A stretch of DNA of 35,161 bases from a virus. The notes beneath the pieces were generated by a model. That model did not search any database and was not told the origin of the DNA. It saw only the letters and a list, made by a program, of their open reading frames with translations. Made by a program: the position numbers and the translations under genes. Location of the stretch: positions 1-35,161 of the IMG/VR virus record IMGVR_UViG_3300036045_000512; one strand, 5' to 3'. Below, one piece after another: positions 12,478 to 35,161 of the stretch (position 1 is the first letter of the stretch; every line of letters starts with the position of its first letter).

Positions 12478-13182
12478 TTACGTGATGGTCTGAGCGGCTC
12501 CGTCGCTGCCCTGTAGACCGGGCTTGTAGGCGGCGGCCCGGACTGTTGTGCCGGATGTCACCGCGAAAGGGATGGTGTATTCAGTCGACTCTGCGTTGCC
12601 CGCGTAGGGGAACGATCCATCGAGGGTGTAATAAATCGTGGCGCCTGCCGTGAGCGTGGTGATGGTGACGTCCGCCGGCGTGCCGGCGATCACAGGCTTG
12701 GCCGCCTTGGCCACCTGATCGAGCCCGTTGCGAGCGTGCAAGATGATGTCGTAGCCTACCGTGCCATCCGGTACTTCGGTGGGCGTCATGGCGTCCTTCT
12801 CCGCATACAGGCATTGCGGACGGCGCGGAGACCAATGATGCAGCGTGCGCAGTACCTCCAAGCCCAGCCTCTCGGCGGTCTTCTGCGTACCGCCCGCCTC
12901 TCGGTTAACGAGAGGATTTTCGAGAACTCGGATGGTGTAAGCCACCTCCAAGAGAGGCCCGGGAGAATCGGAATCGATTGCGTCCACGTCAGGCATCAGC
13001 ACAATCACGCAGGCCCCAGGCAGCTTGCCGGCCTGGGAGGCGAATACAGTGAGCGCCGTCTCCACATCGCTCTCTACGACCCCCTTGGCTTGCGACAGCA
13101 CGATCACGTCGCTGAACGCTTCAGCGGCCAGCAGGCGTCCGTAAATATCAGCCTGCGCGCGATCCAGGAAATCGGTGTTCAT
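12478..13182 (-). CDS. Tail terminator/completion-like protein with chitobiase C-like domain (234 aa)
   Basis: The N-terminal 160 residues (NTDFLDRAQADIYGRLLAAE) resemble Mu gp37-type or tail terminator-like proteins in size, position and alternation of helix and strand; the match is by pattern only. Residues about 170-234 contain AGATIYYTLDGSFPY and GTTVRAAAYKPGLQGSD, the signature of the CHB_HEX_C (chitobiase C-terminal) beta-sandwich domain, a probable decoration module. The frame is open 249 nt further upstream to 13431, but the ATG at 13182 has a strong Shine-Dalgarno (GAGGAGGGG) and overlaps the stop of the 64-aa gene (ATGA at 13179-13182), so I use it. Confidence 0.6.
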   Translation of the reverse strand: MNTDFLDRAQADIYGRLLAAEAFSDVIVLSQAKGVVESDVETALTVFASQAGKLPGACVIVLMPDVDAIDSDSPGPLLEVAYTIRVLENPLVNREAGGTQKTAERLGLEVLRTLHHWSPRRPQCLYAEKDAMTPTEVPDGTVGYDIILHARNGLDQVAKAAKPVIAGTPADVTITTLTAGATIYYTLDGSFPYAGNAESTEYTIPFAVTSGTTVRAAAYKPGLQGSDGAAQTIT

Positions 13183-13373
13183 GGCCCTTCCCCTCCTCGC
13201 GCTTGCTCGGCCGCCCACCGTAGATTCATGGCCATTTCCTCCGCCATCTCGGGAGTCATCGCGAATCTCATCGCCTGCCCTTCGTGGAGAGCAAGCTCCA
13301 TCCACACCTCTTCGCTGGGAGCGTCGAGATCCACAATCGCCTGCCTCACATGAAATATGGGACTGGCACTCAT
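13179..13373 (-). CDS. Hypothetical small protein in head-tail joining block (64 aa)
   Basis: Unrecognised 64-aa acidic, Met-rich protein (ALHEGQAMRFAMTPEMAEEM is the characteristic stretch). It is joined to both neighbours by four-base ATGA overlaps (13370-13373 upstream, 13179-13182 downstream), which strongly suggests it is translated. It lies between the morphogenesis-like protein and the terminator-like protein. Confidence 0.6.
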   Translation of the reverse strand: MSASPIFHVRQAIVDLDAPSEEVWMELALHEGQAMRFAMTPEMAEEMAMNLRWAAEQARGGEGP

Positions 13374-13963
13374 GACGAGCCTCCTTGCAGTCGAGAAATC
13401 TCCCGCTGCAAATATCGGGCGGCCGCGACATTGACAGTGGTCACGACCTCGGCAGAAGGCAGCACGGCACGCGGGTCCTTCTGAACCGCCACGCGAGGCA
13501 CGAGGAGGTAGTGGGCACGGATCGCCTTGCCCTCCCGTTTGGCCAGGATCGCGAACCGCCGGCCGCTGCGGGGCTTTAATAGGAAGAGTTCCCGGCGGTC
13601 ATTGCGGGCGCGCGGGCTCTTGCCGTAAGCCTCGGGCCGCAGCGGTATCGAGAGGTACTTGCCGCGCTTGGGCAAGATCTCTCCGCCGCGAGCTTTCAGC
13701 GCGATGGCGGCGCTGCTGATCCGGATGAGCGCCGTATTATCTGTGATCTGGTCGAGCCGGGTCCTATCGAATCCTTCCTTCTTCCAAAAATTCTGCTTCG
13801 GCCAATTCTTTTTGTTCGGTTCGCGGTTGCGGGCCAGGAAGAGATCTCGCTGAGCAACCTCGACGGCCTTGCCTACCTCGGCCATCAATCCGCGCGGGCG
13901 TGAGACCTGGCGATGCAGGGCGGACAGGAATGGGGTGGCGGCATCGCGGATAACCGTGCTCAT
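13370..13963 (-). CDS. Virion morphogenesis / head-tail connector-like protein (197 aa)
   Basis: Basic protein starting STVIRDAATPFLSALHRQV, with Lys/Arg-rich stretches such as KKNWPKQNFWKKEGFDRTR. Size, charge and position between the head genes and the terminator-like gene resemble Mu gpG-like (phage virion morphogenesis) or HK97 gp10-like proteins, which work at the head-tail junction. The motif set was not verified by search. It ends at an ATGA overlap with the 64-aa gene. Confidence 0.5.
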   Translation of the reverse strand: MSTVIRDAATPFLSALHRQVSRPRGLMAEVGKAVEVAQRDLFLARNREPNKKNWPKQNFWKKEGFDRTRLDQITDNTALIRISSAAIALKARGGEILPKRGKYLSIPLRPEAYGKSPRARNDRRELFLLKPRSGRRFAILAKREGKAIRAHYLLVPRVAVQKDPRAVLPSAEVVTTVNVAAARYLQREISRLQGGSS

Positions 13964-13998
13964 TGACTTTCCTCGCGGTTAAGAGCACATTTTCTTTT

Positions 13999-14172
13999 AT
14001 GGAAGAACCGACTGAATCGATGGCCCGGCTGGACCGGGCTATTGCCGCGATGGAACGGCCTCCTCACTCTGGGAGCGAGGAGATTGACGGAGAGGTCAAC
14101 GATTGCGTCGATATTGGTCCGGACGGTACGCTTACCATCCACGCAGGTATTGACCTGGCTGACGCTCCTTAA
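13999..14172 (+). CDS. Possible opposite-strand acidic small protein (57 aa)
   Basis: The only plausible rightward ORF inside the leftward late operon, filling the 211-bp gap between the MuF-type fusion gene and the morphogenesis gene. The 57-aa product is strongly acidic (about 14 Asp/Glu against 4 Arg) and ends with a regular-looking GPDGTLTIHAGIDLADAP. The start used is the ATG at 13999; there is no clear Shine-Dalgarno. A TTGACT at 13963-13968 could be a -35 box, with a weak -10 around 13987-13993, which would give a nearly leaderless transcript. The alternative is a 75-aa leftward ORF (13960-14187) that overlaps both neighbours. Its sequence is less protein-like, but its junctions fit the operon. 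One of the two may be real. Confidence 0.4.
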   Translation: MEEPTESMARLDRAIAAMERPPHSGSEEIDGEVNDCVDIGPDGTLTIHAGIDLADAP

Positions 14173-14174
14173 GT

Positions 14175-15818
14175 TCACGGCAGCCATCCTTTTTTCTTGA
14201 AGAGCTTTTCAATCGCGTCCGCGATCGGGGCGAAGTCGTCATCGCGCCATACCCCACGCCATTGCTGGTCCACGCCCACCCAATCTGGGCGCATTTTCTG
14301 AAGCTCCGAGGTCAACTGGAGATCTTTCCTCGCCAACCATTGCGCGTAGGAGCGTGCCCAGCATTCGTGGCACTTTCGGTGATACGGGCTCGTCAAGTCC
14401 TTAAACCCCTGGGATGCCCGGACGGCGTCCCTCCATTCCTGGAAGTCGGCGTGGTATTCCGATGCGAACTTGCCCACATCCTCTCTTGGAGTGAAATCCT
14501 TCAAGTCTCCGGTGAGGCCCGTGGTAGGTACATGGAATCCTCGATGATCTAAGAAGTGGCCGACTTCGTGCGCCATCGTCATGCGAGGATGATGGCTCTT
14601 TGGTTTCACGGCGATGTACTGGCCTTCCGTGTCAGTCGAATAGTAGGAGCCCACAGCATTGGGCGATGTCGTCGTTATAACGGAGATTTTATTGAGGTTC
14701 CCATCGTCGTGCGTGCGATCGATTAAATTGAGAGTATGGCGCACCATGTGGCGTATCGAATCGGGAGTGCTCGATGTGTCGACCGCCGACCCGACAGATG
14801 ATTTTGGCTCCCAGGCCGGTGCAGGTGCGGGCTCAGGTGCAGGTGCGGGCTCAGGTGCAGGTGCGGGCTCAGGTGCAGGTGCGGGCTCAGGTGCAGGTGC
14901 GGGCGCCGCGCTCCCCTTCCACCGGATCTGGTCTTTGACGATCTCTATCTGATGACCGAACTGGTCCTTGAGGCGGTCTCTCAGATCAGGAGAAATCCCG
15001 CGCAGGGATGCCTCAAGAGAGGCATTGAAATCCTTATCAATCGGCTTGATGATCTCGCCGGGCTTCAGGAGCGCATAGCGCTCGGCGTCGGCCCGCGACA
15101 CGTCTCGCACGCCCATGCCGCTTTGGAAATCGAATGGAGGCCATGGCACCCCGAACCGGGACAGCTTCGCCCATACCGGATCAGTCTTGAGGGCGATCCA
15201 TTTACCTTCGCTCGGCGACGGCCCTCCAGCTTCTGCCCACCGGCGCGCCCAATCGCGTGGCACCTGGCGGTCTTCGAGCCGCAGCAGTTCCTGCGCAGGG
15301 TAGGCATCCAGCACGTCTTCGTCCTGGTCCATCTTCCAACCGGCGTAGCCTTCGGCCTGTTTGGCATTGATGTCGAAGATCAGCCCGAGCCGGCGACGCG
15401 AGGAAAGATCGAGCAGCCCTCCTTCATCTCCGTCCCCCGGAGCGTAGCCGGACGCCTCGAGTTCGTCCTTGAGATCGGCGATGAATGATTCGCGGTCGAC
15501 CAAGGCCTCGCCTCGCGCCACCTTCTCGCGCGAGAGCGATAGATGCTTGTCGAGCTTGCCCTTCATCATCGACAGAAGCCGGGCATCCTCGACGCGGGAC
15601 GAAAAAAACGCCCGCTGCCGGAGGGCCGTCGGCAGTTGAGCCCATTCCTCAGTCCTCAGCTTGCTGCCAATCGGAGTCCTCGCCCCGATCTGCCGGACCG
15701 CTTCCGCGAACGGTTCCGCCTTGCTCAGATCGATCATGTTTGCGATCACCCGCGTCTTGCGGTGGATTCGCGCGAGTCGTCCCGGCTTCATCTTGGGCGC
15801 GGCCTTCCTCCGCCGCAT
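14175..15818 (-). CDS. Probable MuF-type minor head protein fused to zinc metallopeptidase (547 aa)
   Basis: Three parts. Residues 1-300 look like a minor head (Mu gpF/SPP1 gp7-like) protein; the stretch DPVWAKLSRFGVPWPPFDF followed by SGMGVRDVSRADAERYALL resembles the conserved end of that family. Residues 303-336 are a (APAPEP)n linker. Residues 340-547 carry a zinc peptidase: HEVGH at 417-421 with catalytic Glu418, and a downstream HECWARSYAQW (Glu485), a plausible third ligand. MuF proteins with C-terminal toxin or enzyme domains are a known group of prophage polymorphic toxins, so it may be a head protein, an injected effector or both. The ATG at 15791 (residue 10) has a better Shine-Dalgarno (GGAGGAAGG) and may be the true start. 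The position after gp36, not after the portal, is unusual. Confidence 0.65.
   Translation of the reverse strand: MRRRKAAPKMKPGRLARIHRKTRVIANMIDLSKAEPFAEAVRQIGARTPIGSKLRTEEWAQLPTALRQRAFFSSRVEDARLLSMMKGKLDKHLSLSREKVARGEALVDRESFIADLKDELEASGYAPGDGDEGGLLDLSSRRRLGLIFDINAKQAEGYAGWKMDQDEDVLDAYPAQELLRLEDRQVPRDWARRWAEAGGPSPSEGKWIALKTDPVWAKLSRFGVPWPPFDFQSGMGVRDVSRADAERYALLKPGEIIKPIDKDFNASLEASLRGISPDLRDRLKDQFGHQIEIVKDQIRWKGSAAPAPAPEPAPAPEPAPAPEPAPAPEPAPAPAWEPKSSVGSAVDTSSTPDSIRHMVRHTLNLIDRTHDDGNLNKISVITTTSPNAVGSYYSTDTEGQYIAVKPKSHHPRMTMAHEVGHFLDHRGFHVPTTGLTGDLKDFTPREDVGKFASEYHADFQEWRDAVRASQGFKDLTSPYHRKCHECWARSYAQWLARKDLQLTSELQKMRPDWVGVDQQWRGVWRDDDFAPIADAIEKLFKKKGWLP
14818..14904 (-). repeat. 18-bp tandem repeat encoding Ala-Pro-Glu linker
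   Basis: The plus-strand unit GGTGCAGGTGCGGGCTCA is repeated four times (14818-14889) plus a fifth partial copy to 14904, with no differences between full units. On the minus strand it encodes the repeating linker between the head domain and the peptidase domain of the fusion protein. Perfect identity points to recent expansion, and the copy number is likely variable. Confidence 0.85.
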
Positions 15819-15882: not shown

Positions 15883-16335
15883 CTAGATCCCGTCTGTGGA
15901 TTCCGCTCCAAACTGGAGTGGCGGCGAGGTGATGGCCGGGCGTTGGTGAGGCCGGGCTTCCTCGGATTCTTGCTCGGGAGGCTCGATCGAGAATTGGCAC
16001 TTGGCCACGTCCTTGAGCGTCTCCACCGCATCCTCGTAGAGCTTGCGCCGTTCCTCCGTCATCTTGTACCCGGGCAGTCGCGTTGACAGGCTGTACCTCA
16101 GCACCACCAGCGCCACGTCTTCGAGTTCGTCCGGGATCGTGCCCGGCGGTCCCAGCTTGTTCTGCGCGCAGGCCCCTACCCGCGCGCGAATATGGCGCGT
16201 GGCCGCCGCGATCTCCTCGGCGAGCATCGTGTCCGCATTCTGGCCGGAGCCGAGCGCGGCGGTCTTGATCGCCGTCCACTCGGCACCAGCCCACTTGCGG
16301 CGGATGTCTGCCTCGGTGATCGCGGTCCAGGCCAT
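15883..16335 (-). CDS. Mu gp36-like head-tail joining protein, DUF1320 type (150 aa)
   Basis: Resembles the DUF1320 family (Mu gp36), which lies just after the capsid gene in Mu-like phages and is thought to act at the head-tail connection. The start TAITEADIRRKWAGAE, the helix ending RHIRARVGACAQNKLG, then DELEDVALVVLRYSLSTRL and the Arg/Lys-rich continuation are typical of the family in order and length. The C-terminus is Pro/Glu-rich and shows no domain. It is separated from the signal-peptide protein upstream by 27 nt and from the MuF-type fusion gene downstream by 64 nt, in which nothing else is seen. Confidence 0.65.
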   Translation of the reverse strand: MAWTAITEADIRRKWAGAEWTAIKTAALGSGQNADTMLAEEIAAATRHIRARVGACAQNKLGPPGTIPDELEDVALVVLRYSLSTRLPGYKMTEERRKLYEDAVETLKDVAKCQFSIEPPEQESEEARPHQRPAITSPPLQFGAESTDGI

Positions 16336-18928: not shown

Positions 18929-20017
18929 TTAAAACTCGGCCGCTTCCCTCCTGAGCCGGCGCAGCGTCCTGGCCATGCCGGTCCTGGCTTTCATGCGCTC
19001 CGGGTCGCCTCCGGAGCGCCGAGCATTGTTCTTTTCAAGCGCTGACTGCCTCTTTCGTTTGGCGGCTGCCGCCGTTGCCGTGGCGCTGCGCTTGCGGCTC
19101 TTGGACATCGCCGCGTCGACCTTGGCCGCGCGGCTGCGCACTTGGCCGATCCGCCGATCGGCACGCCCCGATAGATTCGGGCGGCCCATCAGTTTCTCGG
19201 CTTGGCCGATCGATGCCACGCGGGCCTTGAGCTTGGCTCCGATCCGCGCGGCCTGCGCTTCCTTGGCCATCATCGACTTGCGCTTTGCCCGGCGCTTGGC
19301 TTTGGCCTCGGGCTTCCGAGGTCCTCCGCCTCCGCTCCCCCGGCGTGTCAGCCACCCTTTGCGGGCTCCCTCGGAGGTGCCGGCATTGGAAAATAGAGCG
19401 CTGTTTGCCACGGCCGCGATGGCCGTCATGTTCGGCAAATTCGTCAAGCCGGCATCGTGCAGCTTAAGGGGCCGGATGCGGTCGCGTCCTAGGTTCTCGA
19501 CATCCGCCGGCATCCATACCGGTGACAAGTATCGATACTTGCCGCCTTCCACCGCGCTGCGCCCGTCATTGCTCCACCGCACGCGGCCCCACAATCCGTC
19601 GCTTCGCCCCTGCACTTCGGTGATCCACCCGGCTGCCGGAGCTTCTTTCCGGTCGCGATCGTGCGAAGAGTGCTCAAAGTCGACCAGGGCTTCGCCCCGA
19701 AAATTGGCCACCATGTTGGCGACCGCCGCGTCGTCGACCACCTGCACGTAACGCTTCTTGCTCCCGTTCTCCTCGATCATCACCGGCCACTCTCCCTTCG
19801 GAGCGATTTGCACGAACCCGTCCGTAGGCATCTCCCACTTGTCGCCCGTGCCACGGTTGGTGATAGGGATGCAGGACGAGGAGTGGTTCAGGATCGCGGA
19901 TTTTAGGAGGGTTACTCTTTCACCCATATGCGTTGCAATTCGTTGCAAGGGGGGGTACAGCGCGTTTTCGCGCCCGGAGAGGGTCAAGACAGCGGAGGGG
20001 GGGGTGTTCGGGGTCAT
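18929..20017 (-). CDS. Mu gpI-like capsid maturation protease with basic C-terminal tail (362 aa)
   Basis: Residues 80-205 match the Mu-type phage protease: GEALVDFEHSSHDRDRKEAP then AAGWITEV, GLWGRVRW, YRYLSPVW and AGLTNLPNM, in the family order with its conserved Glu-His. It processes capsid assembly proteins inside the prohead. From about residue 219 the protein becomes extremely basic: 45 of the last 144 residues are Lys or Arg, with almost no aromatics. That region replaces the scaffold domain expected in Mu gpI. The start at 20017 overlaps the portal stop (ATGA) and has AGGAA 6 nt upstream; the ATG at 19927 is an alternative. The K/R codons keep the GC-rich usage of the neighbours, so I regard the tail as real. 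Confidence 0.75.
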   Translation of the reverse strand: MTPNTPPSAVLTLSGRENALYPPLQRIATHMGERVTLLKSAILNHSSSCIPITNRGTGDKWEMPTDGFVQIAPKGEWPVMIEENGSKKRYVQVVDDAAVANMVANFRGEALVDFEHSSHDRDRKEAPAAGWITEVQGRSDGLWGRVRWSNDGRSAVEGGKYRYLSPVWMPADVENLGRDRIRPLKLHDAGLTNLPNMTAIAAVANSALFSNAGTSEGARKGWLTRRGSGGGGPRKPEAKAKRRAKRKSMMAKEAQAARIGAKLKARVASIGQAEKLMGRPNLSGRADRRIGQVRSRAAKVDAAMSKSRKRSATATAAAAKRKRQSALEKNNARRSGGDPERMKARTGMARTLRRLRREAAEF

Positions 20018-21588
20018 TTAGGGTTCCTGTGTTGGTGGTGCTTGCGAAGGGCCTGGCGGGCTCCATCAATCGCGGCCTGGCCCATGCCGGTCTCCAGGGC
20101 GCTCCGGAACTCGGATTCCTCCATCGCGCCAAAGACCTCGGGGATGCGGTCCCTCGCCGCCTCCAGAGCATTGAGCCATTCGGCATCGCTGATGCCGCCC
20201 CCGCGCTCTTCGAGATCCGTGATGATTCCACGGAGCGGGGCCAGCCATCCGGAGGGTATCCCGATCTCCCGTGCCGCGCGGTTGAGCACGGCATTGGCAT
20301 AGGCCTCCTCGGCATCCTCTTGCCCGGCTACCTCATCTCCGAACTCGTACCCCGTCTTCTCGGCGAGTTGAGCGCGCGTGACGAAGTAGCCCGCGTTTGC
20401 GAGCTTGGTGGTGTGGTCGACAATTGCGCCGGTGTCAGTTTCTTCCGCGAAGGCCATTTCGAAGTAAGCCAGGCGTGGATTCCCGGGGAATTTGGCGTCC
20501 AGCACGCGGCGGTCGAACGTCCGGCACAGGAGCCGGGAGATGGATTTGGCCTCGCTCTGCGCGAGGTCTCGGAACGCATCTTCATGCGCGGGAGTCGCTC
20601 CCTGGCCGATCCCTGTCGCGGCCGTCAGCATCGTCAGCTTGCCGCCCGTGCCGGCCAAGATCAGCTTTTCCGAAAGATGATCGAGCCTCTCCCTGAATGG
20701 AGCATTGGCCCTGGGCGCATCCGCGCACTTGGCGTCGCTGCCATTCGGTAGCGCTCCGCTCCCGCCCTTGGCCACATTCTCGGCCGCCGCCTGATAATCG
20801 GCTTCCTGGCCGACCGGGATGTCCGGCGGCATGATGATGATCCAGCCAGGAATGCCGTAGATCTCGATGAAGGCGTCCCAATCCTTATCTGATAGATTCG
20901 TGCGGATGTACTTGATGAGGGCAATGCGGTCGACGTACCGGGCGCGCTCGCGCACGATCCAGGTTTCGGGGTCGATGTCCCATTCCGGACCGAGACTCGA
21001 AAATGTCCGTTGGCCGGCGTCGGGATTGTAACGCCAGCCTCCGCGCAGGCCGTCCCTCACCATGTTCCACTGATCGACGGGGCGCAGCTCGATGATGTCG
21101 CCGGCTCCATCCGGGATCATCTCCAGGTGGGAGCATCCCCGGAAGGTCGCCATGCCGAGATGAGCGATGGCTCCATTATCGTCATCCAAATTCTCGATCC
21201 GCTCGTAGGCGGCGCGGAGCGCGGCGGCCTGATCCTCGGCAAGCTTCCGGTCAAAAGCCGCGTGGTCCTCTCCGACGATTTTGATATCCCAATCCATCTT
21301 GCAGAGCGCCGAGATGCGGCGCTCAACAAGAGCGAGCAGGTCGGGGTCGGTCTGCTCGATGAAGAAAAACGTCCATTGCAGGTCGGCCATGTCGCCTCGC
21401 TGGTAGGATTCGAGGAGGGAAATGGCCCGGGAGATCGTCAGGCCGCGCAGTGGGTTGTACTGCTCGCGCCAAGCGTTGAGCGCATTGATCCGCGCACTAA
21501 TCGTCACCTCGGCCCCAGGCGCCAGCGTCAACGGCTTGTGGCCATTGCGTCCAGCGTTGAGGATCGAATGGAATCCGGCTTTCATCAC
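20014..21588 (-). CDS. Portal protein, Mu gp29-like (DUF935 type, 524 aa)
   Basis: Forms the DNA entry ring at the head vertex. The N-terminal region contains LRGLTISRAISLLESYQRGD and DPDLLALVERRISALCKMDW, the usual order and wording of the DUF935 family; further on there is a typical stretch with IKYIRTNLSDKDWDAFIEIY and GIPGWI. Length is as expected for Mu-type portals. The first codon used is GTG at 21588, immediately followed by ATG at 21585. The terminase stop overlaps both (GTGATG), and a strong Shine-Dalgarno (AAAGGAGGG) precedes them. It overlaps the protease start by four bases. Confidence 0.85.
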   Translation of the reverse strand: MMKAGFHSILNAGRNGHKPLTLAPGAEVTISARINALNAWREQYNPLRGLTISRAISLLESYQRGDMADLQWTFFFIEQTDPDLLALVERRISALCKMDWDIKIVGEDHAAFDRKLAEDQAAALRAAYERIENLDDDNGAIAHLGMATFRGCSHLEMIPDGAGDIIELRPVDQWNMVRDGLRGGWRYNPDAGQRTFSSLGPEWDIDPETWIVRERARYVDRIALIKYIRTNLSDKDWDAFIEIYGIPGWIIIMPPDIPVGQEADYQAAAENVAKGGSGALPNGSDAKCADAPRANAPFRERLDHLSEKLILAGTGGKLTMLTAATGIGQGATPAHEDAFRDLAQSEAKSISRLLCRTFDRRVLDAKFPGNPRLAYFEMAFAEETDTGAIVDHTTKLANAGYFVTRAQLAEKTGYEFGDEVAGQEDAEEAYANAVLNRAAREIGIPSGWLAPLRGIITDLEERGGGISDAEWLNALEAARDRIPEVFGAMEESEFRSALETGMGQAAIDGARQALRKHHQHRNPK

Positions 21589-24757: not shown

Positions 24758-25062
24758 CTCGAAGCCTCCAGAATCGCGTAATACATCTGCGCCAACTCCC
24801 TCGCCGTCATGCTGATCTTGATGCCGTCCAACCGCTTCAGGTCGTCGCGTGTCAACGTCGGCGGATCAGCCAGGCGGAGCCTCCGGATTTTCTGATTCAC
24901 CCGCAGAGATTCCTTCGCCATCACTTCTATGACGAATTGCTCCAGAGATGCGATTTCGCTGCTCTCCAATATCCGGAACGCGATGGGATTTGCGGAGGCT
25001 GGATCAGCTCCCTCCGGATCATAAGTCCGTCGAGCTTCCTCATGCTCCACTCCGCTATTCAT
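24754..25062 (-). CDS. Hypothetical protein of the lysis cassette (102 aa)
   Basis: Unrecognised. Acidic N-terminus (NSGVEHEEARRTYDPEGADP), then helical sequence with FRILESSEIASLEQFVIEVM and ISMTARELAQMYYAILE. No membrane segment, so it is not an obvious holin. Joined to the hydrolase and the endolysin by ATGA overlaps at 25059-25062 and 24754-24757, which suggests the three are made in fixed proportion. Confidence 0.6.
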   Translation of the reverse strand: MNSGVEHEEARRTYDPEGADPASANPIAFRILESSEIASLEQFVIEVMAKESLRVNQKIRRLRLADPPTLTRDDLKRLDGIKISMTARELAQMYYAILEASR

Positions 25063-25715
25063 ATGGCTCTCCCAAAATCGTCTTCGATCCCCATGCAGTC
25101 CCGATAGATCAACTCGAACGTCTCATCGCGCTGCGCTCCTAGGTAATAGCCGGAATGTCCGACTTTGGCCGGAAACCACCGCGTGAATATCCTCCCCGTT
25201 TCGATCCGGTCTTCACCTAACGTCCAACCCGTGAATCCCGCATTGCCATACGGCCATATCAGAGGGCTCTTCACCGCGAGGTCCCCTGTGTTCGCGTAGC
25301 ACACGGCGCGCCTCAAGAATCCCGATTGCATCAGCGTCAGAATGCCGTTCTTGGAGACGTCCTGTTCGCACGCCCCTCCGATGCAGACCACAGCCTCGAT
25401 ATGCACGCCTTGCCGCGCCAAGTGGCGGGCCATCTTCAGGATGATGTCGGCTCCGTTGGAGTGCCCCACCAACGCGGGCCGCGCCCCCAGCCGCAGCAAG
25501 GGTTCGAGCCGGGCCGCTGCCTCCCTCGCGATCTGGTAATTCTTCACCCATACATTCCACGCCGGGAAAGGGCCTCCGAAATAGCGAGCCTTCTCCACCG
25601 CCACCCCATTGTGACGCCCATGAATGTACGCCTCAAAATGATCGTTCCACGCCGGCGATGTCTTCCGGGTCAAGATCCCGTGCGCCGCGAAAATCACCAG
25701 ATCGGAATCCTTCAC
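25059..25715 (-). CDS. Alpha/beta hydrolase with lipase box, lysis-associated (218 aa)
   Basis: Serine hydrolase. An HGILT motif at residues 12-16 could form the oxyanion side, the nucleophile elbow is GHSNG at 84-88 (Ser86), Asp145 in NTGDLAVKS and His187 in VGHSGYY complete a plausible triad. It lies next to the endolysin. Actinobacteriophage LysB is an esterase of the same fold that attacks the outer lipid layer, and a similar role on host envelope lipids is a possibility, not a demonstration. The frame is open to 25790; I use GTG 25715, which overlaps the stop of the 61-codon ORF (GTGA), in the same way as the terminase. The longer start would add 25 residues with a Gly/Arg-rich look. Confidence 0.7.
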   Translation of the reverse strand: MKDSDLVIFAAHGILTRKTSPAWNDHFEAYIHGRHNGVAVEKARYFGGPFPAWNVWVKNYQIAREAAARLEPLLRLGARPALVGHSNGADIILKMARHLARQGVHIEAVVCIGGACEQDVSKNGILTLMQSGFLRRAVCYANTGDLAVKSPLIWPYGNAGFTGWTLGEDRIETGRIFTRWFPAKVGHSGYYLGAQRDETFELIYRDCMGIEDDFGRAI

Positions 25716-25897
25716 AGCGCCGCCCACATTGCCAAAAACAGGAGCGCGACGATCCGGTTGCCCTCCCGCTCCGCGTCCGCAAGGCCACATCGATAAGACC
25801 TGCGGACGCGGCGCGGGCTTTCCGGTGTGTGCTCGGCTAGATTTGGTGTGCCAGCAGCGGATATATTGGTGGAGAGCTTCCTTTGCACGGGCAGCAC
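25712..25897 (-). CDS. Possible short hydrophobic-tailed protein upstream of hydrolase (61 aa)
   Basis: A 61-codon frame whose last 15 residues (NRIVALLFLAMWAAL) are hydrophobic. It ends at TGA 25714-25712, exactly overlapping the GTG of the hydrolase gene. The first half (LPVQRKLSTNISAAGTPNL) is low in recognisable features and the start may lie further in. If real it could be a tiny membrane protein, for example a holin-like peptide of the cassette, but the hydrophobic stretch is short. The alternative is that this DNA is the N-terminal extension of the hydrolase in another frame. Confidence 0.3.
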   Translation of the reverse strand: MLPVQRKLSTNISAAGTPNLAEHTPESPRRVRRSYRCGLADAEREGNRIVALLFLAMWAAL

Positions 25898-33658: not shown

Positions 33659-34122
33659 CCCCAAAACAGACTAAGCTGTATTGGCTCAAATGGGGCCAGG
33701 TGTGCGAGTCCCATGGATGGACAGCCCTCAACACCGACCTCGACGCCAGGCGCAAGTCCTGCCACGTCCTGGCACTCGGGACTCCTAAGTCCTCCAAAGA
33801 CTTCTCCAACGCCGATCTCGACCGTGTTCTCAACGTGTTTAGTTCGCTAATTGATTCAGATGATCTAGCCACGCAGATCGACCGCCAGGCTTACGAGACA
33901 GGTGATGATGATCCCGGCGAACGCAAGCGCATCCTGCACAAAATCGCCTCGCTCGGCTTAGAGCAGCCTTACATCACCAAAGTGACTCGCAATATGTACC
34001 ACACATCACGATTCACCGACCTCACGCTCGACCAGCTCCTTAACCTCCGCAACACCCTGGCTAACCGCGCCCGCGTCCGGGACCAGCATCAGAAGGCTGG
34101 GCTTTGGGAGCGTCCTTCATGA
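33655..34122 (+). CDS. Possible GemA/Gp16-like early protein (155 aa)
   Basis: Weak resemblance to the Mu gp16 (GemA) regulatory family: it begins TPKQTKLYWLKWGQVCESHG, contains FSNADLDRVLNVFSSLID and ends with a helix (FTDLTLDQLLNLRNTLANRA) in a similar order. The match is below what I would rely on. Starts at an ATGA overlap with the DnaA-like gene and ends at one with the nucleotidyltransferase (34119-34122). Function in Mu is modulation of host DNA structure or gene expression; here uncertain. Confidence 0.45.
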   Translation: MTPKQTKLYWLKWGQVCESHGWTALNTDLDARRKSCHVLALGTPKSSKDFSNADLDRVLNVFSSLIDSDDLATQIDRQAYETGDDDPGERKRILHKIASLGLEQPYITKVTRNMYHTSRFTDLTLDQLLNLRNTLANRARVRDQHQKAGLWERPS

Positions 34123-34673
34123 AGTTCCCGCGCTCGCTCGCCTGCCAGGTCGCCCGCGAAGTGCTCGTGGCCATCACACCAGCATGCGAGCGCGTGATAG
34201 TTGCGGGCTCTTTGCGGCGTCGCAGACAGGAGGTCGGCGACGTCGAGATCCTCTACGTTTCGCGCATGGAGCAGGACCCGACATCCGACTTGTTCGCTCC
34301 AACGTCGCGGCCGGTCGTGGACTCGGCGATCGCGCTCCTCGAACAACGAGGAATCCTCCGCCGGCGTGAGAGCAAGATCGGGACTGAAGTATTTGGGCCA
34401 AAGAATAAGCTCATGGTGCATTTGCCGACCAGTGTCCCGGTCGACTTTTTCTCCACGACGGTCTCGGCATGGTGGAACTACCTCGTCTGCCGTACCGGCG
34501 GCAAGCAGAACAACATCCGGATTTGCGAGGCAGCTCGGAAGAAAGGCTGGCAGTGGAAGCCCTACTCGGAGGGCTTCCTCGAATACGGCTACCGTGTCAT
34601 TCCCGTGGCATCAGAACAGGAGGTCTTTTCCCTCGTCGGCCTCCCCTACCTAGAGCCATGGGAGCGGCAGTAA
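34119..34673 (+). CDS. DNA polymerase X-type nucleotidyltransferase (184 aa)
   Basis: A compact PolX-like protein. The nucleotidyltransferase signature is AGSLRRRRQEVGDVEILYVS (residues 29-48), with metal-binding Asp41 and Glu43, and a third acid at Asp109 in VPVDFFST. Downstream RTGGKQNNIRICEAARKKGW matches the 'TGs-x-x-h-n-x-x-lR-x-A' segment of PolX, and the C-terminus GLPYLEPWER has its characteristic Y-x-x-P-x-x-R end. The 8-kDa lyase and fingers regions at the N-terminus are missing, so it is a minimal palm plus thumb. Glu replaces the usual second Asp (D-x-D). Likely gap filling or terminal addition; the frame is open upstream, and ATG 34119 is chosen for the ATGA overlap. Confidence 0.75.
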   Translation: MKFPRSLACQVAREVLVAITPACERVIVAGSLRRRRQEVGDVEILYVSRMEQDPTSDLFAPTSRPVVDSAIALLEQRGILRRRESKIGTEVFGPKNKLMVHLPTSVPVDFFSTTVSAWWNYLVCRTGGKQNNIRICEAARKKGWQWKPYSEGFLEYGYRVIPVASEQEVFSLVGLPYLEPWERQ

Positions 34674-35161
34674 CGATCCCTCCAGTGCTCGATGCGTGCT
34701 GCGGGCCTCGCATGATGTGGTTTGATCGCGCCGATGGGCGGGCGCTCTTCGTGGACAAGCGGCGCGAGGTTTGCCATGCAGACACACGGGAGGGCCGGCG
34801 CGAAATCGTCGTCGATCCTAACATGCTGGCGGACTTCACCGCGCTGCCCTTCGCGGATGGCACATTCACGTTGGTCGTCTTCGATCCGCCGCACACCTTC
34901 GCCGGCCCGAACGGGTGGACACGGAAAAAATACGGGACGCTCACGCCAGCGTGGCGGGAGGAAATCAGCGCTGGATTCGCGGAGTGCTTTCGAGTGCTCT
35001 GCCCTCTCGGCACCATGATTTTCAAGTGGAGTGAGCACCGAGTGCCCGTGTCCACCGTCCTGTCGCTTACTCCCGAGAAGCCTCTCTTTGGACAACGCTG
35101 CGGATCGACCGCGAAAACTCACTGGCTGGTTTTCTTAAAAGAACTGGGAGGCAATCCTTAA
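34658..35161 (+). CDS. Class I SAM-dependent methyltransferase (167 aa)
   Basis: Motif I is DACCG at residues 12-16 (VLDACCGPRMMWFDRADGR), followed by a strand with an acidic end (ALFVDKR), and motif IV is DPPH at 76-79 (VVFDPPHTFAG), which suits an N6-adenine or related DNA methyltransferase. A separate target-recognition domain is absent. Very similar short proteins are widespread in phage genomes, often of unknown target. Start at ATG 34658 overlaps the end of the nucleotidyltransferase by 16 nt, and the frame extends further upstream to 34469. It ends at the last base of the window with TAA. Confidence 0.7.
   Translation: MGAAVTIPPVLDACCGPRMMWFDRADGRALFVDKRREVCHADTREGRREIVVDPNMLADFTALPFADGTFTLVVFDPPHTFAGPNGWTRKKYGTLTPAWREEISAGFAECFRVLCPLGTMIFKWSEHRVPVSTVLSLTPEKPLFGQRCGSTAKTHWLVFLKELGGNP

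What the first reader, a model, noticed from the sequence alone, without database searches (positions are those of the whole stretch)
14175..15818. Minor-head domain joined to a zinc metallopeptidase by a repeat linker
The N-terminal part resembles MuF/gpF-type head proteins, and the C-terminal 200 residues hold HEVGH plus a downstream Glu in a HECWARSY context. This is the architecture of the MuF polymorphic toxins of temperate phages, but with a peptidase as effector. The protein may be injected with the DNA, cleave a host target or act during maturation.
Basis: partly seen in the sequence, partly recalled or inferred. Interest (0 to 1): 0.75.

Follow-up and report, generated by a model that had tools for sequence, protein, structure and literature searches.

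The report
Phage head protein carrying swappable peptidase
A virus of bacteria makes a minor head protein that ends in a zinc-peptidase domain, and related viruses swap that end for other toxin-like enzymes, so it is most likely a weapon packed in the particle and delivered into the infected cell; this is a known kind of phage toxin in a new lineage, with a small, previously unclassified partner gene that may act as its off-switch.

Summary
The finding holds, on the minus strand. Gene 14175-15818 (547 aa) joins a divergent MuF minor-head domain to a C-terminal zincin through an 18-bp tandem-repeat Pro/Ala/Glu linker. The window protein misses the Pfam MuF model, but its clade profile matches classical MuF at 99.1% (E 8.6e-19). 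The named ligands H417, H421 and E485 are invariant among 76 full-length family members, and the AlphaFold core (pLDDT 89) is zincin-like.

Phages with the same N-terminus carry no extension, this zincin, other HExxH domains, an ADP-ribosyltransferase, PBECR nucleases or kinase-like domains. A tree of N-termini needs at least 28 changes of effector type. That fits a polymorphic effector, not a head-maturation enzyme; the phage has a separate Mu-type head protease.

New here: most zincin versions have a small acidic gene directly behind them (80 of 106, against 0 of 37 short MuFs). It is under purifying selection and sometimes lies on the opposite strand; ten examples matched no Pfam family. 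It is an immunity or inhibitor candidate. In this window only a positional candidate exists (57 aa, 13999-14172, + strand).

MuF-metallopeptidase fusions were already reported (Jamet 2017). Delivery, cleavage and target remain inferred.

The parts
14175..15818 (-). MuF-zincin gene, 547 aa (ATG to stop)
   Evidence: Open frame; full-length relatives
15069..15659 (-). Divergent MuF minor-head domain, about residues 54-250; the classical CxC motif is not conserved in its clade
   Evidence: hhalign of clade alignment A7 with classical MuF: 99.1%, E 8.6e-19 and 98.4%, E 9.4e-15; alignment
14818..14904 (-). Pro/Ala/Glu linker encoded by an 18-bp tandem repeat, at the junction where relatives swap their C-termini
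   Evidence: Tandem Repeats Finder: 4.8 copies, 100% matches
14178..14798 (-). C-terminal zincin domain, residues 341-547
   Evidence: 98-sequence alignment; AlphaFold pLDDT 89.1, pTM 0.87
14556..14570 (-). HEVGH, residues 417-421: two zinc ligands and the catalytic Glu418
   Evidence: H417, E418 and H421 invariant; lie in the model helix 71-87
14364..14366 (-). Glu485, predicted third zinc ligand
   Evidence: Invariant; lies in the model helix 143-156
14709..14711 (-). His370, invariant, role unknown
   Evidence: Invariant
13999..14172 (+). Candidate partner gene, 57 aa, acidic, convergent with the MuF-zincin gene
   Evidence: Position and orientation as in L109, L110, L135, L161, L164. Codon score inconclusive; no match to the partner HMM. 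Positional candidate only
13370..13963 (-). gpG-like gene following the MuF gene; landmark for the 211-nt gap
   Evidence: Homologs follow the MuF gene in many relatives; gpG is this report's label, no Pfam or PHROG hit
15883..16335 (-). Mu gp36-like gene upstream
   Evidence: PF07030, E 2.8e-11
18929..20017 (-). Separate Mu-type head maturation protease
   Evidence: PF10123, E 1.8e-24; phrog_328, E 5.4e-27
20014..21588 (-). Mu-type portal protein
   Evidence: PF06074, E 4.1e-31

Best explanation
This is a MuF polymorphic effector of a Mu-like temperate phage, probably of a Verrucomicrobiota host. The N-terminal MuF domain places a few copies of the protein inside the head at the portal (inferred from SPP1 gp7). 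The C-terminal zincin is a swappable enzymatic warhead that enters the cell with the DNA and cuts a host protein through a zinc-bound water activated by E418, with H417, H421 and E485 holding the metal. A small acidic protein encoded directly behind the gene most likely restrains the peptidase in the producing or lysogenic cell. Shown: the domain architecture, conservation of the active-site residues, C-terminal swapping, and a partner gene in the family. Inferred: packaging, injection, proteolysis, target, the partner's role, and that this phage has such a partner.
For: MuF by profile. Active-site residues invariant and a confident zincin-like core. Same N-terminus joined to ADPrib_exo_Tox, PBECR1, PBECR3, other HExxH domains or nothing. 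At least 28 changes of effector type on the N-terminal tree, at least 14 for the zincin label, 7 forced by well supported branches. Same zincin on classical MuF N-termini. Acidic small ORF behind 80 of 106 zincin versions, 0 of 37 short MuFs, 3 of 25 other extensions; dN/dS 0.04-0.28. SPP1 gp7 is directed to the procapsid interior by the portal (PMC6316719); MuF toxins with metallopeptidases are known (PMC5576092).
Against: No biochemical or virion data for this family. 17 of 106 zincin versions, the Akkermansia representative L005 among them, showed no acidic small ORF by the criterion used. The window's candidate partner does not match the partner HMM. In L007 the gene lies about 9 kb from the portal gene, so it is not always a plain head-operon gene. 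Foldseek gave no match with E <= 0.001.
Confidence: 0.62

Rival explanations
1. The zincin is a maturation or self-processing peptidase: it acts inside the prohead, trimming MuF or its neighbours, or releases itself from MuF before ejection.
For: Some zincins of phage polyvalent proteins are thought to process their own polypeptide, as proposed for P1 DdrB (PMC5512222). The long linker gives a plausible cut site.
Against: Close relatives with the same N-terminus have no extension at all, or a non-peptidase one. The phage has its own Mu-type head protease. No other effector domain lies between MuF and the zincin that would need release.
Confidence: 0.15
2. The zincin is injected but is a counter-defence or lysogeny-decision factor with mild effect, not a growth-inhibiting toxin; the small partner is then a regulator or folding helper.
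For: Jamet et al. suggest moderate toxicity and a lysis-lysogeny role for MuF peptidases (PMC5576092).
Against: The alternatives at the same position include ADP-ribosyltransferase and PBECR nuclease domains, and the acidic partner is largely specific to zincin versions, which suits an inhibitor.
Confidence: 0.17
3. The zincin is inactive or a structural add-on kept for folding or capsid contacts.
For: No activity is known for this family, and no solved structure matched with E <= 0.001.
Against: Both zinc His, the catalytic Glu and the third ligand are invariant in 76 full-length and 98 domain sequences that otherwise diverge widely. dN/dS of the gene is about 0.1 in close pairs.
Confidence: 0.03

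Closest known systems
MuF polymorphic toxins of temperate phages (Jamet et al. 2017, PMC5576092)
   Same: N-terminal MuF domain, exchangeable C-terminal enzymatic domain, temperate phage; [quoted passage not shown]
   Different: This clade's MuF is missed by the Pfam model and has lost the CxC. Their toxins are over-represented in Firmicutes, these phages are tied to Verrucomicrobiota. The partner sometimes lies on the opposite strand.
Akkermansia phages Chambord and Chantilly 'head morphogenesis' protein
   Same: Same full architecture, 90% coverage at 26-27% identity. They are induced prophages of a mouse-gut consortium (PMC10197239).
   Different: The gene lies next to the terminase genes and the phages carry an integrase. 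No acidic partner of 38 aa or more was found behind L005, an IMG/VR locus whose protein matches Chantilly's.
Zincin MPTases of phage polyvalent proteins (Iyer et al. 2017, PMC5512222)
   Same: Core of helix, three strands, HExxH helix and Glu helix; Asp three residues after HExxH (D424); MuF is a partner domain in that network.
   Different: Two-domain protein rather than a large polyvalent one. The invariant His370 lies before the first strand of the model, not at the end of strand 2 as described for their widespread phage clade. LPD1 matches only 23 of 76 members, best E 2.1e-4.
Bxa and related MuF toxins of Bacteroides prophages (PMC11699363)
   Same: MuF head protein joined to an enzymatic toxin, with adjacent immunity genes; 13 of the 76 members match phrog_16625, labelled Bxa ADP-ribosyl transferase, probably through the MuF part.
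   Different: Bxa carries an ADP-ribosyltransferase, with demonstrated toxicity and immunity; nothing is demonstrated here.

Membership tests
MuF polymorphic toxin | N-terminal MuF domain | tested here: met
   Profile-profile 99.1%, E 8.6e-19. The window protein alone does not hit PF04233
MuF polymorphic toxin | C-terminal effector domain exchanged among proteins with the same N-terminus | tested here: met
MuF polymorphic toxin | Encoded by a temperate phage among head genes | tested here: met
   Between the gp36 and gpG-like genes of a record with Mu-type portal and protease
MuF polymorphic toxin | Adjacent immunity gene | tested here: inconclusive
   Small partner in 80 of 106 relatives; in the window only a positional convergent ORF
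MuF polymorphic toxin | Packaged in the virion and delivered to the host | not testable with these tools
   Needs virion proteomics
MuF polymorphic toxin | Toxic activity neutralised by the immunity protein | not testable with these tools
   Needs expression assays
Zincin metallopeptidase | HExxH plus a downstream acidic ligand, all conserved | tested here: met
   Invariant
Zincin metallopeptidase | Zincin fold with ligands clustered in space | tested here: inconclusive
   Helix order of the model fits and leading Foldseek hits are mostly zinc peptidases, none with E <= 0.001; distances not measured
Polyvalent-protein phage MPTase clade (Iyer 2017) | Conserved His at the end of strand 2 and Asp three residues after HExxH | tested here: inconclusive
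   D424 is nearly invariant, but the invariant His370 lies before strand 1 of the model
PHROG 4529 | HMM match of the protein | tested here: not met
   The window protein has no hit at E <= 1, though 71 of the 76 family members match

The most novel reading that the evidence does not exclude
The small acidic partner is a previously undescribed family of zincin-specific immunity proteins (protein inhibitors) that travels with the zincin module and is repeatedly turned to the opposite strand. In convergent phages, perhaps including this one, it would be expressed from the prophage and protect lysogens from the MuF-zincin injected by related phages: a built-in superinfection shield.
Probability: 0.35. 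Interest if true: 0.65.

Novelty: new member of a known kind. Interest (0 to 1): 0.5.

Why it matters
It extends phage-head polymorphic toxins with a peptidase warhead to a Mu-like clade of phages tied to Verrucomicrobiota and shows the warhead exchange directly on a tree. The small partner family makes the open question of whether MuF peptidases are really toxic testable by co-expression, and induced Akkermansia phages with the same architecture offer a system for asking whether the protein rides in the virion.

Tried and rejected
Single-sequence Pfam, NCBIfam, PHROG and PDB sequence searches were weak or hit the low-complexity linker. The search for related loci with the protein alone found nothing, so alignments were used. 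Foldseek with the N-terminal model found no MuF structure. My motif filter for a classical MuF profile kept one sequence only, so that HMM test was discarded in favour of hhalign. The same-strand 75-aa ORF at 13960-14187 was rejected as the window's partner: poor codon score, basic composition, no match. Promoter and terminator scans of the gap were near background. L184 against L093 as a clean module insertion was set aside, because they share no sequence beyond MuF and L184 lies near a contig end. Clustering of the extensions merged two types, probably through linkers, and was corrected by hand before the tree.

Full report
Observation. The window is a whole 35,161-base IMG/VR virus record with Mu-like genes: Portal_Mu, Mu-like protease and gp36, a terminase and a major head protein, and transposase-like and MuB-like genes (my reading of the sequence). 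The reported ORF lies on the minus strand, 15818 to 14175, 547 aa. The repeat linker is an 18-bp unit in 4.8 perfect copies.

MuF domain. Alone, the protein gives only phrog_220 at E 0.003 and no PF04233 hit. An alignment of its clade (A7) against MuF domains carrying the classical PPNGWGCRC-type motif gives prob 99.1%, E 8.6e-19, and a second classical group gives 98.4%, E 9.4e-15. Among 76 full-length family members, 35 match PF04233 directly. The classical CxC is not conserved in the window's clade. The N-terminal AlphaFold model is moderate (pLDDT 80) and Foldseek found nothing useful.

Zincin domain. Relatives were found with alignments in IMG/VR and GTDB genomes. By record title they span several phyla (Verrucomicrobiota, Bacteroidota, Proteobacteria, Planctomycetes, Chloroflexi, Actinobacteria and others). 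H370, H417, E418, H421, E485, A488, R489, Y491 and Q493 are invariant in 76 full-length sequences, as are the corresponding positions in 98 domain sequences. The AlphaFold model of residues 341-547 has pLDDT 89 and pTM 0.87. Its core is a helix, three strands, the HExxH helix, then a helix carrying Glu485, the layout described for the zincins of phage polyvalent proteins (PMC5512222). Foldseek against PDB gives no match with E <= 0.001, but the leading hits are mostly zinc peptidases or HExxH proteins. Coordinates could not be read, so ligand distances were not measured.

C-terminal swaps. A scan with the N-terminal alignment returned 80 loci. Their C-termini differ: no extension at all; this zincin; other HExxH domains; and, by Pfam, ADPrib_exo_Tox (L153, E 5.7e-10), PBECR1 (L204, 4.4e-13), PBECR3 (L144, 3.4e-4, below its cut-off) and Kinase-PolyVal (L220, 2.1e-4, below its cut-off). 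Three further loci (L016, cut off by its contig; L017; L019) carry nearly the N-terminus of the Akkermansia zincin phages with a different C-terminus, which holds another HExxH in L017 (HELAH) and L019 (HELIH). On a tree of N-termini, effector type needs at least 28 changes and the zincin label at least 14, of which well supported branches force 7. In the other direction, the same zincin sits on classical MuF N-termini. This is the defining behaviour of a polymorphic effector and argues against an obligatory maturation role. The phage also has its own Mu-type head protease.

Partner gene. Most zincin versions are followed by a small acidic ORF whose start overlaps or abuts the zincin stop. Counting acidic ORFs of 38-115 aa on the same strand gives 80 of 106 for zincin, 0 of 37 for short MuF and 3 of 25 for other extensions. 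One caution: the codons of the conserved terminal Gly-Trp can supply an ATG in another frame (GGATGG, as in the window), so the start overlap alone proves little. Two further facts do not depend on it. The small ORFs evolve under purifying selection (dN/dS 0.04-0.28 in the closest pairs with a finite value). An HMM from seven same-strand partners finds homologs on the opposite strand behind the zincin gene in L109, L110 and L135 (E 7e-10 to 8e-12; no reversed decoy below E 1), and L161 and L164 carry a similar sequence there. The distance from the MuF stop to the gpG-like gene, measured to the start of its model, is 26 nt (median) in short MuFs and 192-255 nt in 11 of 12 zincin versions (the twelfth is 1287 nt; several loci come from the same contigs), p = 7e-6; the window gives 229 by this measure, an actual gap of 211 nt. 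Ten small proteins, including the window's candidate, matched no Pfam family at E <= 0.1 and PHROGs only marginally.

In the window itself the gap holds a convergent 57-aa acidic ORF (13999-14172, +). It is the best of six frames by codon use, but within the overlap of true and false frames, and it does not match the partner HMM. Convergent acidic ORFs also appear behind 6 of 37 short MuFs. It is therefore a positional candidate only.

Host. In one search the zincin relatives that also share the window's N-terminal clade lie in records titled Verrucomicrobia, Opitutae, Haloferula and Akkermansia, and the nearest annotated phages are Akkermansia phages. A Verrucomicrobiota host is inferred.

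Mechanism. [quoted passage not shown] Jamet et al. proposed that MuF toxins are delivered with the DNA, and counted metallopeptidases in 20% of 191 MuF toxins (PMC5576092). The most likely reading is a packaged zinc-peptidase effector that cuts a host protein, restrained by the small partner. Packaging, delivery, catalysis, target and inhibition are all inferred.

Novelty. MuF-metallopeptidase fusions are a known kind. New to this analysis, as far as the libraries and papers searched show, are the Mu-like clade with its divergent MuF, the direct count of effector exchanges, and a small partner family that changes strand.

Noticed in passing
L146, L147, L148, L158, L188, L221 (C-termini): A shared C-terminal extension on the same MuF domain, with a GRKPLY/FH-like motif in most copies; the one scanned (L158) has no Pfam match and the gpG-like gene follows closely in five of them. 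Possibly an undescribed effector domain.
   Followed up: partly
L017, L019 (Akkermansia phages), L160, L149, L169: Other HExxH C-termini on related MuF domains (HELAH, HELIH, HELTH, HESGH, HELMH), with no clear match to the zincin family studied here; L169 gives a weak match.
   Followed up: partly
L007 (2992-4524) and L013 (4999-6555): MuF-zincin genes outside the usual gp36-gpG position; in L007 the gene lies beside early-type genes, about 9 kb from the portal gene, and no second MuF was found in either record.
   Followed up: partly
L168, L194, L198, L206: Very long MuF proteins (901-1554 aa) with a shared, kinase-like region by eye; L168 has no Pfam match.
   Followed up: no
window 25059-25790 (-): Alpha/beta-hydrolase-like ORF (GHSNG motif) near the endolysin-like CHAP gene.
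   Followed up: no
window 12478-13431 (-): ORF whose C-terminus matches Fn3_assoc and CHB_HEX_C_1 (E 1.5e-13 and 2e-12), in the tail region.
   Followed up: no
window 34104-34673 (+) and 34469-35161 (+): By eye, a family-X polymerase-like nucleotidyltransferase ORF and a methyltransferase-like ORF at the right end of the record.
   Followed up: no
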